Shown: one piece after another, positions 11,571-42,751 of the stretch
How positions within the stretch are numbered: position 1 is the stretch's first letter
How the letters are laid out: each line of letters starts with the position of its first letter
Origin: Dyadobacter sp. CECT 9275
GTDB taxonomy: Bacteria; Bacteroidota; Bacteroidia; Cytophagales; Spirosomataceae
Assembly (NCBI RefSeq): GCF_907164905.1
Contig: NZ_CAJRAF010000002.1
Location: 1,178,001-1,242,000 of the forward strand
Direction of reading: 5' to 3'
Length of the DNA: 64,000 nucleotides
Made by a program: the position numbers and the translations under genes
The notes under the pieces: generated by a model
The model's database searches: none
What the model was told of the DNA's origin: nothing
What the model saw: the letters and a program-made list of their open reading frames with translations, nothing else

Positions 11571-13232
11571 ATGAACGTAATTAAAAAGACGTGTGCGCCT
11601 GCCAACAAGGCCGAAAACTGGGACAGCATAGACTGGGCCAGTTGTGAGGCTGGTGTCCGAAAGCTGCAAGAGCGTATTGTAAAAGCTCAGAAAGAAGGCA
11701 AACATAACAAGGTGAAAGCCCTGCAATGGATGCTGACGCATTCGTTCCACGCCAAAGCTTTGGCCGTGAAACGAGTAACTTCAAACAAAGGTAAGAATAC
11801 AGCGGGTGTGGATGCAGTTCTCTGGTCTACGCCAAATGCAAAGTATCAGGCCATTACCGACCTGAAAAGACGGGGATACCAACCCCAACCGTTAAAACGG
11901 GTGAACATTGCCAAGAAGAACGGGAAGCTACGCCCTTTGGGCATACCTACCATGAAAGACAGAGCCATGCAGGCCTTACACCTGATGGCGCTGGAACCAG
12001 TGACGGAAACCATAGCTGACAGCCACTCGTACGGCTTCCGCAAGGAACGCAGTACGGCCGATGCCATGTCACTTTGTTTCAATCTGCTTTCAAAAAGGGT
12101 ATCGCCACAATGGGTATTAGAAGCCGACATCAAGGGATGCTTCGACCACATCAGCCATCAGTGGTTACAAAACCATGCGCCAACCGATAAGGTAGTGCTG
12201 CAAAAATGGCTGAAAAGTGGATTCATATTCGAAAAGAAACTATTCCCGACAGAAGAAGGCACTCCGCAAGGAGGTATCATTTCCCCTACTCTTGCCAATC
12301 TGACCCTGGATGGCTTGCAAGTCTTACTTGCAGAAAAATTCAGAAAGAGACAGGCTAATCTGGAATTGATTGTTCCAAAGATAAACCTTGTCCGCTATGC
12401 TGACGATTTTATTATCACGGGTACTAGCAGAAAGCAACTCGAAAACGAAGTGCTGCCCCTGATCAAGGATTTTCTATCGGAAAGAGGGTTAGAGCTCTCC
12501 ATGGAAAAAACCAAGATTACGCACATTACAGAGGGGTTTGACTTTCTTGGCTTCAACATCCGTAAATATGATAACGGCAAGCTTCTGATTAAACCATCCA
12601 AGGACAGCCTGAAGCGATTCTCCGAAAAAGTGGCGGCAATCATTGATGCCAATAAAACTAGTCGGCAGGACGTACTCATCAGGCAGTTGAACCCAGTTAT
12701 CACGGGATGGGCAAACTACTATAAAAGCTGTGTAGCATCCGAGACTTTCAGGAAGGCAGATTCACTGATATTCAAAAAGCTGTGGGCATGGGCTATGAGA
12801 AGGCACCCCAAAAAGGGCAAGTTCTGGGTCGCAAGCAAGTATTTCCGCAAAGTCAAGAACAGAAACTGGACATTCGCCGTCGATACACCTGACTTTAAGA
12901 GCAGAAACGAAGTGTTCTCTCTGAAAAGGTTGTACGACACAAAGATACTCCGCCACGTTCAGATTAAGCAGGAAGCTAACCCCTTCGATCCTGAGTGGAA
13001 ACCCTATTTTGACCAAAGGGAGGCATACAAGATGCTCGAATCCCTTGGGGGTAAGAAGTCGCTACTCCACTTGTGGAAGCGGCAAAAACGCACCTGCCCC
13101 TTCTGCGGCAAACTAATCGGACGAGAGATCCCCTGGGGTACTATTGCCCTGATGGAAGAAGGACAAAAGAGAAACTTCCTCGTTCATGATGTCTGTCGAA
13201 GAAGCTACCACCAATTAAAATTGAAGTTATGA
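11571..13232 (+). CDS. ltrA: Group II intron reverse transcriptase/maturase
   Basis: Protein of 553 residues encoded in intron domain IV. It has RT blocks with the catalytic YADD at 276-279 and the upstream SYGFRKERST and GTPQGGIISP motifs. The maturase X domain follows (NPVITGWANYYK), then a Cys-rich C-terminus (CPFCGK, later HDVCRRSYHQ) resembling an HNH endonuclease domain. The protein binds its own intron RNA, assists splicing and primes reverse transcription at the DNA target. No frame disruption is visible. The HNH domain looks somewhat degenerate, so second-strand cleavage is less certain than RT activity. Confidence 0.95.
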   Translation: MNVIKKTCAPANKAENWDSIDWASCEAGVRKLQERIVKAQKEGKHNKVKALQWMLTHSFHAKALAVKRVTSNKGKNTAGVDAVLWSTPNAKYQAITDLKRRGYQPQPLKRVNIAKKNGKLRPLGIPTMKDRAMQALHLMALEPVTETIADSHSYGFRKERSTADAMSLCFNLLSKRVSPQWVLEADIKGCFDHISHQWLQNHAPTDKVVLQKWLKSGFIFEKKLFPTEEGTPQGGIISPTLANLTLDGLQVLLAEKFRKRQANLELIVPKINLVRYADDFIITGTSRKQLENEVLPLIKDFLSERGLELSMEKTKITHITEGFDFLGFNIRKYDNGKLLIKPSKDSLKRFSEKVAAIIDANKTSRQDVLIRQLNPVITGWANYYKSCVASETFRKADSLIFKKLWAWAMRRHPKKGKFWVASKYFRKVKNRNWTFAVDTPDFKSRNEVFSLKRLYDTKILRHVQIKQEANPFDPEWKPYFDQREAYKMLESLGGKKSLLHLWKRQKRTCPFCGKLIGREIPWGTIALMEEGQKRNFLVHDVCRRSYHQLKLKL

Positions 13233-38004: not shown

Positions 38005-38169
38005 AGAAAACACCAGTAGCGGATATGCTGTGTTTAATTCCAGTCCCATTTTTTCACCTAATAAATTATCATGAAATGAGGTAAAGATAAGTAGTGTATA
38101 TCCCTACCCGAATGGGAGTGTTCGGCTAGTATCGGAACGAGGGTTCCGCGGATATCTAAGTTTTGTAGG

Positions 38170-38216
38170 GTAGCGTCGCCAAAAGTGGCCTTGCTGGTTC
38201 GAATCCAGGGCGCTGA
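38170..38216 (+). other. tRNA T-arm-like sequence before DGR target 1
   Basis: The text GCTGGTTCGAATCCAGG followed by GCGCTGAC looks like a T arm and acceptor end, but no matching 5' acceptor strand is present and the T stem has one mismatch. Likely a tRNA fragment, for example left by integration, not a working tRNA. Confidence 0.35.
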
Positions 38217-38238
38217 CAAAGTTCTAAACCAATTTTAC

Positions 38239-38643
38239 ATGAAAACTGAACAAGAATTAATCGACCTCATAATCAGCTACGAAGCTGCTTGTGAATTAAG
38301 AGGTGTAACTCCTTTAACGATAGAAGACTTTGCAAAGCACCCGGAAGAAGACCGCGATTCAGATTTTGCTTCCCATCAGCTTAATGTAATCTGCAGTGCG
38401 TTTTGGAATGGCGAAAAGATTGATTATACGAACTTTAGACAAAAAAAGTATGAGATAATTTGGGTTTGGAATGAGAATACCGCTGGTGGTTCCGGGTTTT
38501 CGTTCGGCGGCGTCCTTTGCCTCGCTTCGGCTTCGTTTGTCGGCGCCCGCCACTCGTACCCTTCTGATCGAATAGCAAGGATAGGAGCAACTCGCTTTGT
38601 AGATATTTATAACCGCTTTCTTTCTCCATACAAACCGAAATGA
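38239..38643 (+). CDS. DGR target protein 1 (variable C-type-lectin-like)
   Basis: Protein of 134 residues from ATG 38239. The N-terminal part (SYEAACELRGVTPLTIEDFA, then FASHQLNVICSAFWNG) is shared with target 2. The C-terminal part carries the variable region AGGSGFSFGGVLCLASASFVGAR, followed by a conserved helix (IARIGATRFVDIYNRFL). This is the layout of small Bacteroidota phage proteins diversified by retroelements, with a lectin-like fold holding variable residues on its surface. The role is probably ligand binding; the partner is unknown. Confidence 0.85.
   Translation: MKTEQELIDLIISYEAACELRGVTPLTIEDFAKHPEEDRDSDFASHQLNVICSAFWNGEKIDYTNFRQKKYEIIWVWNENTAGGSGFSFGGVLCLASASFVGARHSYPSDRIARIGATRFVDIYNRFLSPYKPK
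38480..38548 (+). repeat. DGR variable repeat VR1
   Basis: 69-nt repeat, CCGCTGGTGG at its start and GTCGGCGCCC at its end, inside target gene 1. Relative to VR3 it differs only at TGC for TAC, GCT for TAT and GCT for GAT: first or second codon positions only. Confidence 0.88.
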
Positions 38644-38846
38644 AAACGTATTTCATTCTCCGAATCTGCTGGTTACCGACGCTGGGTTTGATTATCTACC
38701 TGAAATCGTTCGCTGTTTCCTCACTGAACTGGTTCGCAAGCAACCCAACGATGTACAATAAGAGTACAGGTTATTTACCGCTTATTGTAATAATTACGCT
38801 GGCCGCACTTTCCCGTAAAATAATCGCGCGATGGAATGGAAACTGA
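38640..38846 (+). CDS. Small membrane protein
   Basis: Protein of 68 residues whose start overlaps the stop of DGR target 1 (ATGA). Two hydrophobic segments (about 5-28, 45-58) and a basic end. No family recognised; coupling to target 1 hints at a shared role. Confidence 0.5.
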   Translation: MKTYFILRICWLPTLGLIIYLKSFAVSSLNWFASNPTMYNKSTGYLPLIVIITLAALSRKIIARWNGN

Positions 38847-38970
38847 CCTGATTGAAAGAGTTCTCGTGCTGATCCCGGAGGCTAAACCATGGCTGATCGG
38901 AATCGCGATTCTGCTGATTTTTCTGATGGTGTCTACCAGCGTTCTGAAGCGAGACAAGAACAACGTATAG
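38836..38970 (+). CDS. 44-residue single-pass membrane protein
   Basis: A short frame from ATG 38836 overlapping the preceding gene by 11 nt. It reads a short acidic start, one clear membrane helix (WLIGIAILLIFLMVSTSVL) and a basic tail (KRDKNN). Positive-inside topology and gene coupling support it as a real small protein. Function unknown. Confidence 0.5.
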   Translation: METDLIERVLVLIPEAKPWLIGIAILLIFLMVSTSVLKRDKNNV

Positions 38971-38987
38971 GCATAACCGAAAGAGCA

Positions 38988-39149
38988 ATGACAGAGGAAG
39001 AAATATATGAAATGGAATCGGAATTAGCCTGGCAGCAAATACAAAATCCTGACAACGGAGATCGGTACGACACAAAAGGAAATTATTCACATACAGAAAA
39101 CCTAAACCAATATGTCACTTATTCAAAAATTGATAAAAATACAGACTGA
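38988..39149 (+). CDS. Small acidic hypothetical protein
   Basis: Open frame of 53 residues from ATG 38988 (MTEEEIYEMESELAWQQIQN). An upstream in-frame ATG at 38889 would lie inside the previous membrane gene and is less likely. It overlaps the ERF gene by 38 nt. No family recognised. Confidence 0.4.
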   Translation: MTEEEIYEMESELAWQQIQNPDNGDRYDTKGNYSHTENLNQYVTYSKIDKNTD

Positions 39150-39750
39150 GCTTAAAGCTCCTAAAAGCCAGTATAACTCTTTCGGCAAATATAACTACCG
39201 TAATAGTGAAGATATTCTTGAAGCCGCAAAGCCTCTTTTAAGCAGAGAGGGGCTTGCGATCTTAATAAGCGACAGTATCGAGCTTGTTGGTGGGCGGTTC
39301 TATGTCAAATCAACCGCATTGATTACAGACGGAACAGATTCAACTGAGGTTTCTGCATATGCTCGTGAAGAAGAAAGCAAGAAAGGGATGGATGGGTCGC
39401 AGGTAACCGGAGCTAGTTCTTCTTATGCCAGAAAATACGCCTTAAACGGTCTTTTCGCTATCGACGATAACAAGGACAGCGATCATTCGAACACTGGAAA
39501 GGATCAACAAGAAGCTCCAAGACAGTCCATGGAGACTAAAACAAAGACTGAGCAAGCAAAATCGAAGGATGGACGAAAAGCACCTGAAGCTTTAATTTCA
39601 GGCACTGAGAACTGGGAGAAAGTAATTACCAAGCTTACCGAAAAGGGGAAAACTGAGCTAGACTGGAAAAATGAAATAAAGTCATTTTATGTCATCACTG
39701 AAAAAGACGAAAAGCTTCTTTTTGAGCGCATGTCATGGCTACCATTTTAA
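39112..39750 (+). CDS. erf: ERF family single-strand annealing protein
   Basis: Protein of 212 residues. The ERF core is clear: FGKYNYRNSEDILEAAKPLL, then ITDGTDSTEVSAYARE and VTGASSSYARKYALNGLFAI (about 100-120). The C-terminal third is a linker plus a small acidic domain. ERF proteins anneal single strands and drive phage recombination and circularisation. It works with the RusA-like and NinG-like enzymes upstream. Confidence 0.92.
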   Translation: MSLIQKLIKIQTELKAPKSQYNSFGKYNYRNSEDILEAAKPLLSREGLAILISDSIELVGGRFYVKSTALITDGTDSTEVSAYAREEESKKGMDGSQVTGASSSYARKYALNGLFAIDDNKDSDHSNTGKDQQEAPRQSMETKTKTEQAKSKDGRKAPEALISGTENWEKVITKLTEKGKTELDWKNEIKSFYVITEKDEKLLFERMSWLPF

Positions 39751-39769
39751 ACACTAAACAATAAAATAA

Positions 39770-39997
39770 ATGGCTGAATTTTTAGAAGGGTTTATTGTAA
39801 AAAAACCGAACGAGAAAGCGCCTGAATTCGTACTGGCGACAATATCAATGAAAGTTGAAGATGTTATTTCATCGCTCAAAAAGAACGAAAAGAATGGGTG
39901 GGTTAACCTCAATGTTAAAAAGTCAAGAGACGGAAAACTTTATGCCGAAATTGATGATTGGGAACGAAATAGAAGAACGAACGATGACAGATGGTAG
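39770..39997 (+). CDS. Hypothetical protein next to ERF
   Basis: Protein of 75 residues: FLEGFIVKKPNEKAPEFVLA.ISMKVEDVISSL, then GWVNLNVKKSRDGKLYAEID. It resembles a short OB-like protein often found after annealing or SSB genes. It follows ERF by 19 nt. The role as a recombination partner is inferred. Confidence 0.55.
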   Translation: MAEFLEGFIVKKPNEKAPEFVLATISMKVEDVISSLKKNEKNGWVNLNVKKSRDGKLYAEIDDWERNRRTNDDRW

Positions 39998-40340
39998 CCT
40001 ACAAATTCCTTCTTACCACGTCTATCTGTTCAAAAGCTCCGGCATTAACTCGGCGCACTCTGCCAACGTATTTAACACGTTTAAGCCAGCCTTAAAGAGA
40101 AAGTATTTTAGCTCTTTATGTGTTTGGGTGGCTCAATTCGGAGTACTATGGGATGCAGCTTATGGGAAATTCAGAACTGTTTACGAATATGACCATGAGG
40201 CTGATACGATTTGTATCGCAAGTTTTATTCCTGGTGGATACGGATGGAGCGGGGTATTGAGAAATCCGGGATGTAGTTATGTAGCCGCCTATGACGAGTA
40301 TCATGCTCGGAAAGAAATAGAGCAACAAAAAAGGGTTTAG
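39984..40340 (+). CDS. Hypothetical phage protein
   Basis: Protein of 118 residues from ATG 39984, overlapping the previous gene by 14 nt. It is aromatic and rich in beta segments (YHVYLFKSSGINSAHSANVF; CVWVAQFGVLWDAAYGKF). No family recognised. Confidence 0.45.
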   Translation: MTDGSLQIPSYHVYLFKSSGINSAHSANVFNTFKPALKRKYFSSLCVWVAQFGVLWDAAYGKFRTVYEYDHEADTICIASFIPGGYGWSGVLRNPGCSYVAAYDEYHARKEIEQQKRV

Positions 40341-40413
40341 GAGTATTACGGGCCGCCTGCCCTTATCTGGCTCCGCTTTGCGGGATTGATTCACATTTAT
40401 CAAACAAAATAAT

Positions 40414-40893
40414 ATGGAAGCACAAGTTTTAACAATCACAGCATTAAATGCACAGAATGCCTTTAACAAGGCTAATTCTGAAATAAAAAAGACTCTTCAA
40501 AGTCTTTGGCCAGATCATAATTTCAACCGGGATATTACCGAGATGGTGGATAGCTACGAAGCGGCTTGCGAACTGGAAGGAATCACACAATTGACCATTG
40601 CTGATTTCGAATTTCTCCCAGAGCAGGACCGAGAATATCATTTTGTTGATCACCAGCTTAATATTATTCACCGAGCCTTAAATGAAGGGTGGACATGGAA
40701 AGAAGGTGAACGAGGTTACTATCCAGTTTTCAATAGGGCCGCTGGTGGTTCCGGGTTTTCGCTCGGCCTCGTCGGTTACTGCTCTTCGTCTTCGACTGTC
40801 GGCGCCCGCCGGACCTATAAAGACGAGAGATTAGCAATGCACTCGGCTAAAAAGTTCCTACACCTACATTCTGTAATCCAAAACAACGAATAA
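40414..40893 (+). CDS. DGR target protein 2 (variable C-type-lectin-like)
   Basis: Protein of 159 residues. After a 45-residue N-terminal helix it repeats the target-1 text (SYEAACELEGITQLTIADFE, FVDHQLNIIHRALNEG). The variable region AGGSGFSLGLVGYCSSSSTVGAR sits at about 110-132, followed by a short conserved helix (AMHSAKKFLHLHS). It is the most diverged of the three variable regions (eleven base differences from VR3 in seven codons, none at a third position). One nt separates it from target 3. Confidence 0.85.
   Translation: MEAQVLTITALNAQNAFNKANSEIKKTLQSLWPDHNFNRDITEMVDSYEAACELEGITQLTIADFEFLPEQDREYHFVDHQLNIIHRALNEGWTWKEGERGYYPVFNRAAGGSGFSLGLVGYCSSSSTVGARRTYKDERLAMHSAKKFLHLHSVIQNNE
40739..40807 (+). 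repeat. DGR variable repeat VR2
   Basis: 69-nt repeat in target gene 2. Compared with VR3, codons TTC, GGC, CTT, CTC, TAT, GAT and TTT read CTC, CTC, GGT, TGC, TCT, TCT and ACT; third bases are unchanged throughout. Confidence 0.88.
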
Positions 40894-40894
40894 G

Positions 40895-41278
40895 ATGAAT
40901 ATCAGAGAACAAGTAAAAACAATTGAAGACGCGTGCCGGTTACGCGGTGTTGAATACAGCGATATCACACCATGGCCTGAGCCTAAAAACGACTTTCAAA
41001 AAGCTGTAAATAATTTCGCCCATAGCGTGATTGTAATCGAGGCTCTTAATGAAGGCAAAGTTCCGGACTACGACAATGGTGAGCCAAAATTTGAACTGTG
41101 GTGGGATATGAGGGGTCAAGCCGCTGGTGGTTCCGGGTTTTCGTTCGGCGGCGTCCTTTACCTCTATTCGGATTCGTTTGTCGGCGCCCGCCTCGTTTTT
41201 ATCGAGGAAGAAAATGCAGAATACTTTTCTACCCAGTTCCCGCACCTGTTTGAGGGTTTTATGGTGGTGAAAAAATAG
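40895..41278 (+). CDS. DGR target protein 3 (variable C-type-lectin-like)
   Basis: Protein of 127 residues. The N-terminal helices (VKTIEDACRLRGVEYSDITP, FAHSVIVIEALNEG) resemble target 2. The variable region AGGSGFSFGGVLYLYSDSFVGAR begins near residue 77, followed by EENAEYFSTQFPHLFEGF. It is the last target before the putative template repeat and reverse transcriptase. Its 69-nt variable repeat is identical to the template-position copy. Confidence 0.85.
   Translation: MNIREQVKTIEDACRLRGVEYSDITPWPEPKNDFQKAVNNFAHSVIVIEALNEGKVPDYDNGEPKFELWWDMRGQAAGGSGFSFGGVLYLYSDSFVGARLVFIEEENAEYFSTQFPHLFEGFMVVKK
41121..41189 (+). repeat. DGR variable repeat VR3
   Basis: 69-nt repeat in target gene 3, identical over its whole length to the copy at 41302-41370. 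Directly downstream a hairpin CCTCG/CGAGG (41191-41207) may serve retrohoming. Confidence 0.88.
41191..41207 (+). other. Hairpin just 3' of VR3
   Basis: CCTCG and CGAGG pair around a 7-nt loop two bases after the end of VR3. In studied DGRs a hairpin or cruciform after the variable repeat increases homing. VR1 and VR2 lack a clear equivalent. Confidence 0.5.
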
Positions 41279-41301
41279 AAGAAATAGGTTGTGTGCTGTT
41301 G

Positions 41302-41370
41302 CCGCTGGTGGTTCCGGGTTTTCGTTCGGCGGCGTCCTTTACCTCTATTCGGATTCGTTTGTCGGCGCCC
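41302..41370 (+). repeat. Template-position copy of the DGR repeat
   Basis: 69-nt copy between target 3 and the reverse transcriptase, where a template repeat belongs. Its 3' flank (CCCACA for CCCGCC) differs as an IMH* would. However, it lacks AAY codons at the variable sites and is identical to VR3, so it cannot have produced VR1 and VR2. Either the template was overwritten by VR3 sequence, or the true template lies elsewhere. Confidence 0.6.
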
Positions 41371-41493
41371 ACATATGTAAGTCATTAATTAATTTATTGA
41401 CAGCACAGACCTTGCCCACATGGCAAAAAATGACCTCTAAAATTTTATGGGGCTTTGGTAGCGAAAGTGAAGATGACCCGCAAAGCATAGGCA

Positions 41494-42531
41494 ATGAAAA
41501 AATTCGGGAATTTGTACGAGAAGATTTGCAATAGAGAAAACCTATTACTGGCCGACCTGCACGCGAGTAAAGGAAAATCCAGGCAGAAAGATGTGAAGTT
41601 TCATATTCAAAATCGTGAAGCAAACTTGGAATTACTTCATCAGATGTTGGTAAACAAAACTTTTAAAACTTCCGAATACAAAACCTTTACCATTTTCGAG
41701 CCTAAAAAGCGTATTATTTCAAGGCTACCTTATTTCCCTGACAGGCCAGTACAGCATGCTATCATGAATGTGGTTGGTCCTATCTGGCTATCCGTATTCA
41801 CAAAAGATACTTACAGTTGCATAAAAGGCCGGGGCGTTCACCTCGCATTGAAAAATGTGAAGCTCGCCTTGAAGGATGTTCCGAACACTACATATTGTCT
41901 CAAACTGGACATTCAAAAGTTTTACCCCAGTGTTGATCACAAGATTTTAAAACGGATCATCCGGCTTAAAATAAAGGACAATGATGTTTTGGATCTGATT
42001 GATGGCATTATTGATTCATCACCGGGCCTTCCAATTGGCAATTATCTAAGCCAGTTTCTTGGGAATCTGTATCTGACATACTTTGACCATTGGCTTAAAG
42101 AAGTCATGCGTGTAAAATACTACTTCCGGTACTGTGATGACATGGTCATCTTATCAGGATCGAAACAATATTTACACCAGTTGCTCGCAGACATCCGTCT
42201 TTACCTTGACATTGATTTGAATCTTGCATTAAAACCTAACTATCAGATTTTCCCTGTCGAAAGTCGCGGTATTGACTTTCTGGGATACGTAATCAGGCAC
42301 GATTACGTACGGATGCGAAAAAGAATAAAACAAAGCTTTGCCAGGGCAATAGCAAAAAGAAAACCGAAGTTCAGCCTCGAAGCTTACAAGGGCTGGGCAA
42401 AACATGCAAATACTCTCCACCTCATAAAGAAACTTAACGATGACTCAAATAAAAAACTTCAAAGATTTCGGGATAACCGCCGAATTCAAAGGGATGGAAG
42501 GCGAGAAAATAGATATATACCAGGTCCTTAA
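41494..42531 (+). CDS. Diversity-generating retroelement reverse transcriptase
   Basis: Protein of 345 residues of the Bacteroidota DGR type. It starts MKKFGNLYEKICNRENLLLA and has RLPYFPDRPVQHAIMNVV, CIKGRGVH and LDIQKFYPSVDH. The DGR-typical SQ in GNYLSQ is at 186-187 and the catalytic YCDD at 213-216. It copies template RNA with errors at adenines and transfers the cDNA to variable repeats. The second active-site residue is Cys rather than the usual Ala. It is intact and follows the target genes in the same direction. Confidence 0.94.
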   Translation: MKKFGNLYEKICNRENLLLADLHASKGKSRQKDVKFHIQNREANLELLHQMLVNKTFKTSEYKTFTIFEPKKRIISRLPYFPDRPVQHAIMNVVGPIWLSVFTKDTYSCIKGRGVHLALKNVKLALKDVPNTTYCLKLDIQKFYPSVDHKILKRIIRLKIKDNDVLDLIDGIIDSSPGLPIGNYLSQFLGNLYLTYFDHWLKEVMRVKYYFRYCDDMVILSGSKQYLHQLLADIRLYLDIDLNLALKPNYQIFPVESRGIDFLGYVIRHDYVRMRKRIKQSFARAIAKRKPKFSLEAYKGWAKHANTLHLIKKLNDDSNKKLQRFRDNRRIQRDGRRENRYIPGP

Positions 42532-42751
42532 CAAAGAAATTGAGGTTCACCGGTATCGAATAGAAAACTCCAAATATCCCGAGAAAGGAAATGGCAAGCG
42601 CCTCGATATGGAAATAGTTTTCGATGGCCGTAAAAGGGTTGTGTTTTCAGGGTCAGTGATTCTTCAGGAAATAATCAAAAAGATACCGCTCGCATCATTT
42701 CCGTTCAGAACGGTGATTAAAATGATCAACCGACGTCACGAATTTACCTGA
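42440..42751 (+). CDS. Probable DGR accessory protein
   Basis: Protein of 103 residues overlapping the RT 3' end by 92 nt. Its text (FKGMEGEKIDIYQVLNKEIE, then RLDMEIVFDGRKRVVFSGS and IPLASFPFRTVIKMINR) matches, as far as I recall, a small protein found beside DGR RTs in Bacteroidota phages. It is not the four-helix Avd protein by sequence, being mainly beta. It may bind RNA or DNA for the retroelement; this is inference. Confidence 0.6.
   Translation: MTQIKNFKDFGITAEFKGMEGEKIDIYQVLNKEIEVHRYRIENSKYPEKGNGKRLDMEIVFDGRKRVVFSGSVILQEIIKKIPLASFPFRTVIKMINRRHEFT

What the first reader, a model, noticed from the sequence alone, without database searches (positions are those of the whole stretch)
38239..42751. 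Diversity-generating retroelement with three lectin-like target genes
One RT (SQ at 186-187, YCDD at 213-216), an accessory gene, and three related proteins whose 69-nt repeats end in GTCGGCGCCC. Repeats VR1-VR3 differ from one another only at eight codons that share their third base. Three targets served by one RT in a phage or prophage allow combined diversification of related surface-type proteins. Motifs are read directly; the biology follows from the DGR family.
Basis: partly seen in the sequence, partly recalled or inferred. Interest (0 to 1): 0.88.

Follow-up and report, generated by a model that had tools for sequence, protein, structure and literature searches.

The report
Retroelement whose template was overwritten
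A bacterial prophage carries a protein-diversifying retroelement whose master template, normally rich in the mutable base A, appears to have been replaced by a copy of one of its own products, so most of its power to diversify seems lost.

Summary
In detail: one DGR-type RT, a small RT-adjacent gene, and three related targets whose 69-nt repeats differ only in first and second bases of eight codons. The fourth copy (41301-41370), at the template (TR) position, is identical to VR3 and holds 3 adenines; 187 related templates hold 14-42. In the wider set 244 of 262 relatives show an adenine-biased TR/VR pair. No further copy was found in this genome. The TR-bracketing stem, TR-type 3' border and RT catalytic residues are kept. 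So this is a DGR by descent whose template was overwritten by VR-type sequence, most likely from VR3. VR1 shares 10 of 14 variable sites with the new template and differs at its 3 adenines plus one T, as if homing ran again from it. 'Lectin-like' is unsupported. An assembly fault cannot be excluded without reads. Side finding: a clade-specific RT partner gene with a predicted OB-like fold (213 of 274 loci). All nine literature searches failed, so novelty in print is untested beyond passages of two papers.

The parts
38239..38643 (+). Target gene 1 (134 aa from the ATG), VR near C-terminus
   Evidence: best relative L005:4497-4907, E 3.2e-46
38479..38548 (+). Variable repeat VR1: 10 of 14 variable sites shared with VR3 and the template copy
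40414..40893 (+). Target gene 2 (159 aa)
   Evidence: best relative L005:4907-5392, E 3.8e-35
40738..40807 (+). Variable repeat VR2: 12 differences from the template copy, 2 of them at its adenines
40895..41278 (+). Target gene 3 (127 aa)
   Evidence: best relative L005:5398-5781, E 3.1e-29
41120..41189 (+). Variable repeat VR3, identical to the template-slot copy
41292..41299 (+). 5' arm of the stem that brackets TR (follows conserved GGTTG at 41287-41291)
41301..41370 (+). Template-repeat slot, now holding VR-type sequence with 3 adenines
41400..41407 (+). 3' arm of the TR-bracketing stem
41408..41489 (+). Spacer between TR and RT; sub-threshold Rfam RT-17 match (25.7 bits, gathering score 40.4, E 0.14)
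41494..42531 (+). DGR-type reverse transcriptase, 345 aa, catalytic aspartates present
42440..42751 (+). RT-overlapping partner gene (103 aa), predicted OB-like fold

Best explanation
The locus descends from an ordinary Bacteroidota-phage diversity-generating retroelement whose template repeat has been overwritten by variable-repeat sequence. Shown: the copy in the template position is identical to VR3, has 3 adenines where measured related templates have 14 or more, and carries the VR-type base at a diagnostic 5' site, while the TR-bracketing stem, the TR-type sequence beyond the 3' border and the RT catalytic residues are kept. Inferred: VR3 DNA was copied into TR 181 bp away, across short shared ends (about 9 nt on the left, 10 nt on the right), probably by annealing or gene conversion. 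Inferred: homing then ran at least once more from the overwritten template, because VR1 shares ten variable states with it and differs at its three remaining adenines. By adenine mutagenesis the element could now write at most 64 sequences.
For: Slot copy equals VR3, 70/70 nt. Three adenines (4% of the slot) against 14-42, median 21, at least 20% of the repeat, in 187 relatives. In one search, 4442 of 4647 mismatches of A-biased TR/VR pairs lie at TR adenines. In one search, 244 of 262 relatives are canonical; the other 18 had no such pair, and one search found no relative among 189 loci whose slot copy matches a VR without mismatch. Nearest relatives with the same targets have templates with 17-19 adenines (L005, L154, L006, L086). 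The template adenine about 60 nt from the TR end is A in 4 of 4 of those templates and G in all 9 of their VRs; the window's slot has G. The slot is the real TR slot: the flanking arms pair in 91.6% of cells over 140 anchored loci of 213 (shuffled between loci 63.8%, highest 67.9%; slid at most 50.3%), and the window keeps all 8 pairs. Border CCC|ACATATG is kept, versus CCC|GCC in its VRs. VR1-VR3 share 10 of 14 variable sites, VR1-VR2 and VR2-VR3 2 each. All three slot adenines lie among the four VR1 differences (by hand, 11/1001 = 0.011). RT keeps 99 of 105 conserved columns. No other copy found in the 7.23-Mb genome.
Against: One genome only; no relative found shares the converted template, and no reads were available to rule out an assembly or polishing fault. 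The diagnostic 5' site is a single position and could have been G already. One of the four VR1 differences is at a T, which needs an ordinary substitution or an earlier, slightly different overwritten template. VR-to-VR copying may occur in the family (L226 has two VRs identical at 22 of 22 TR-A sites), so part of the VR1-VR3 likeness could be direct copying. The VRs here hold few adenines at the 14 sites (5 of 42, by hand) against 35% at template adenines in relatives (2420 of 6838); VR2's share is not explained. RT activity is unproven and 6 of 105 conserved RT columns differ, one of them (G190) next to the SQ motif.
Confidence: 0.78

Rival explanations
1. The template overwrote itself: adenine-mutagenised cDNA made from TR homed into TR instead of VR, perhaps in more than one step, and the same cDNA or a later faithful copy went into VR3.
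For: Gives the same end state. In BPP-1, direction is set by a 21-bp sequence with five TR/VR mismatches at the 3' end and 8 bp of homology suffices for 5' integration (PMC3240598, Introduction and passages), so leaky direction is conceivable. VR1's T difference fits a two-step erosion.
Against: The overwritten tract seems to reach the 5' zone, where VRs of relatives are mostly G and do not look randomised (G 78% at 60-65 nt from the TR end); mutagenised cDNA would give G there about a third of the time (36% over all template adenines). The TR-type 3' border is unchanged.
Confidence: 0.15
2. Assembly or polishing artefact: VR3 sequence was written over the true template in the consensus.
For: The copies start 181 bp apart, share ends and are 70/70 identical; only one assembly was seen.
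Against: The genome is in 4 contigs at 100% completeness, which suggests good data. The VR1 pattern (3 of 3 slot adenines changed, ten other states shared) is expected from a really overwritten template and not from an artefact (inference).
Confidence: 0.07
3. The RT has a different mutation spectrum and the slot is an ordinary, current template.
For: VR2 differs from the slot at 12 sites, of which 10 are not adenine.
Against: VR3 is identical and VR1 has 3 of 4 differences at adenine. The relatives measured, up to 68% identical in RT, use adenine. RT catalytic residues are present.
Confidence: 0.03
4. The slot copy is a duplicated VR fragment and the true template was lost or lies outside the held genome.
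For: No A-rich copy is held; a plasmid or missing contig is possible.
Against: The copy lies exactly inside the conserved TR-bracketing stem, at the usual distance from RT, with the TR-type 3' border.
Confidence: 0.03

Closest known systems
Bordetella phage BPP-1 DGR (PMC3240598: abstract, Introduction and passages read)
   Same: RT family (best PDB match 8ub7, which I recall as the BPP-1 RT complex), TR next to RT, VR in the target gene, TR/VR difference at the 3' end
   Different: In BPP-1 the TR is reported to remain unchanged and transfer is one-way. Here TR has become VR-like. The RT partner is predicted beta-rich, unlike Avd, which I recall as a helical bundle. Targets are not recognisably lectins.
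Bacteroidota phage DGRs of PHROG 1423 (L005, L006, L086, L154 and others)
   Same: RT 62-68% identical, related targets, same RT partner gene, same TR-bracketing stem
   Different: The four named have adenine-rich templates (17-19 A)
DGR clusters with under 75% of mismatches at adenine: 7 clusters (the paper has 1318 RT clusters; Roux et al. 2021, PMC8144416, two of three parts of Results and one Methods section read)
   Same: Low adenine bias between TR and VR
   Different: Their cause is in supplements I did not see; whether any is a template overwritten by a VR is unknown to me

Membership tests
Diversity-generating retroelement | RT of the DGR clade with catalytic YxDD and SQ motif (motif recalled) | tested here: met
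   by similarity, no tree was built
Diversity-generating retroelement | Near-identical repeats in target ORF(s) and beside the RT | tested here: met
Diversity-generating retroelement | TR/VR mismatches fall on TR adenines; adenine-bearing template | tested here: not met
   VR3 0 mismatches, VR2 2 of 12 at adenine, VR1 3 of 4; 3 adenines in the slot. 244 of 262 relatives meet it.
Diversity-generating retroelement | TR lies in a conserved RNA context upstream of RT | tested here: met
Diversity-generating retroelement | TR and VR differ at the 3' border (direction signal) | tested here: met
   CCC|ACATATG versus CCC|GCC; its role in this family was not tested
Diversity-generating retroelement | Avd-type accessory protein | tested here: inconclusive
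   No convincing Pfam match; model beta-rich and OB-like
Diversity-generating retroelement | Mutagenic homing activity | not testable with these tools
   needs reads or culture
C-type lectin DGR target | C-type lectin fold around the VR | tested here: inconclusive
   Model of target 3 shows no PDB match at E<=0.001; the VR stretch has lower pLDDT (62-73)

The most novel reading that the evidence does not exclude
Template overwriting is a recurring, useful outcome: a phage can write a successful VR back into its template, locking most positions and restricting further diversification to the few adenines that remain, so that the 'immutable' template is itself heritable memory. Repeated rounds would form a ratchet that ends DGR activity.
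Probability: 0.15. Interest if true: 0.85.

Novelty: new variant of a known kind. Interest (0 to 1): 0.6.

Why it matters
DGRs are described as one-way: the template stays unchanged while the target varies. A natural case in which product sequence has replaced the template would show how a DGR can lose or narrow its function while its genes stay intact. It would make testable what really protects the template, and it warns that repeat-based DGR searches can misread such loci. The covarying TR-bracketing stem and the OB-like RT partner gene also give testable parts for a large phage DGR clade.

Tried and rejected
Looked for an A-rich template elsewhere in the window and the genome (exact; with up to 3 mismatches): only the four known copies. 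Looked for the slot sequence in IMG/VR: none. Looked for other converted templates: none in 189 loci with slot pairs. Loci without a detected pair were other things as far as I could see: L124 has a template with an internal deletion (by eye); L041, L058 and L125 have displaced templates; L295 shows none within 620 nt (by eye); L306 gave no clear template.

Rows set aside. In one search, L275 (4 of 9) and L318 (16 of 29) gave weakly A-biased slot pairs; by eye their slot copies do bear adenines. The other low-A rows there end at -205 to -239 and are VR-VR pairs by position. Searches count the window as A-biased through its VR1 pair alone (3 of 4); I subtract it. Near-duplicates remain.

One search's first stem test mis-anchored the window and was replaced (140 of 213 anchored, 73 dropped). 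Hairpins downstream of VRs: a 5-bp one after VR3 only, not clearly conserved, not used. Rfam: sub-threshold RT-17 match; at gathering score ten relatives gave only two tRNAs. Target fold: the five BFVD hits at E<=0.001 are uncharacterised phage proteins. The crAss-like phage record (same RT family, tail-protein neighbour) was looked at and not used. Literature: all nine paper runs failed, so I make no claim that template overwriting is unreported.

Full report
What is there. The window is G000:C2:1178001-1242000 of a 7.23-Mb genome in 4 contigs. Two same-genus genomes with the RT have contig lengths equal to the Dyadobacter records L085 and L086, so I infer a Dyadobacter host. Integrase, replicative helicase, DNA methyltransferases, Erf, terminase subunits and portal make this a prophage. 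The finding's elements are all present: RT 41494-42531, a small gene 42440-42751 overlapping its end, and three target genes with a shared repeat.

The repeats. Within the 69-nt repeat, VR1, VR2 and VR3 differ at 14 positions, all in the first or second base of eight codons. That is the pattern DGR mutagenesis leaves when the template has adenines at those positions. A fourth copy lies at 41301-41370, with 123 nt between it and the RT. It is identical to VR3 over all 70 nt and has three adenines.

What the slot should hold. I fetched RT relatives from viral contigs and genomes and searched genomes of the genus, family and order. In one search, 200 distinct loci (window included) had at least 600 nt upstream of the RT; 190 had an adenine-biased TR/VR pair, and 4442 of 4647 mismatches in those pairs were at TR adenines. 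The window is one of the 190 only through its VR1 pair (3 of 4). In one search, 189 loci (window included) had a slot pair of at least 50 nt; the window is the only one whose slot copy has no mismatch to a VR. In one search the templates of 187 relatives have 14 to 42 adenines (median 21; 20-42% of the repeat); the window's has 3 (4%). With more loci, 448 records gave 263 distinct loci; 244 of 262 relatives were canonical. Of the 18 others, 15 have a stretch with at least 6 NAY codons in 14 near the RT (some may be chance, and L306's does not look like a template); L124, L125 and L295 do not.

The slot is the true template slot. In relatives, two 8-nt arms, one just before TR and one about 30 nt after it, pair with each other. 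Over 140 of 213 loci that could be anchored without looking at complementarity, 91.6% of cells pair, against 63.8% when arms are shuffled between loci and at most 50.3% when slid. The window's arms pair fully. Beyond the repeat the slot reads CCC|ACATATG, like the templates of L154 and L006, while its VRs read CCC|GCC. The RT keeps 99 of the 105 columns conserved in at least 93% of 213 distinct RTs, catalytic aspartates included; six differ, among them G190 near the SQ motif.

How it came about. In the four nearest relatives examined, a template adenine about 60 nt from the 3' end is G in all nine VRs, and the window's slot has G there. In 145 loci, template adenines in this 5' zone (60-77 nt) appear as G in VRs 78-86% of the time, unlike most of the interior. 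So the donor looks like a resident VR, and VR3 is the one that matches. This rests on one site and on inference. VR1 shares 10 of 14 variable sites with the slot; VR2 shares 2. VR1's four differences include all three slot adenines. In 13 relatives with three VRs the largest pairwise share at such sites is 0.23-0.58 in 12 and 1.0 in L226. The simplest order is: VR2 written from the old template; VR3 copied into the template; VR1 written from the new template, plus one T change. Two successive overwritings would explain the T without an extra mutation. One thing is unexplained: the three VRs hold adenine at only 5 of 42 site-states (by hand), against 35% in relatives.

What it can do now. Three adenines allow at most 64 sequences. 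Whether homing still happens cannot be told from one genome.

What is known. Guo et al. 2011 (PMC3240598; abstract, Introduction and passages read) state that TR remains unchanged and that transfer is one-way, with direction set by a 21-bp sequence having five TR/VR mismatches. Roux et al. 2021 (PMC8144416; [quoted passage not shown] I could not search the literature further: all nine paper runs failed.

Verdict. DGR ancestry is firm. As it stands the element fails the adenine-template criterion, so I describe it as a template-overwritten derivative of a DGR, not as a normal working one.

Noticed in passing
window 42440-42751: RT-overlapping gene family, clade-specific (213 of 274 loci), predicted OB-like fold; possible non-Avd DGR accessory protein.
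   Followed up: partly
window 41287-41407: Covarying stem that encloses the template repeat in the clade.
   Followed up: yes
window 11571-13232: Another reverse-transcriptase ORF, strong PF00078 match (E 1.3e-43 at G000:C2:1189907-1190560); group II intron type is my guess.
   Followed up: no
L124 upstream of RT: Template with an internal deletion, with a VR-like stretch upstream (by eye).
   Followed up: no
L226: Two VRs identical at 22 of 22 template-adenine positions, suggesting recent VR duplication or copying.
   Followed up: no
L006 1635-2132: A VR-bearing ORF (1635-2051) lies directly before a tRNA gene (2061-2132), perhaps an attachment site.
   Followed up: no
window 38110-38230: tRNA-like T-arm sequence before target gene 1 that ARAGORN and Rfam do not call.
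   Followed up: no
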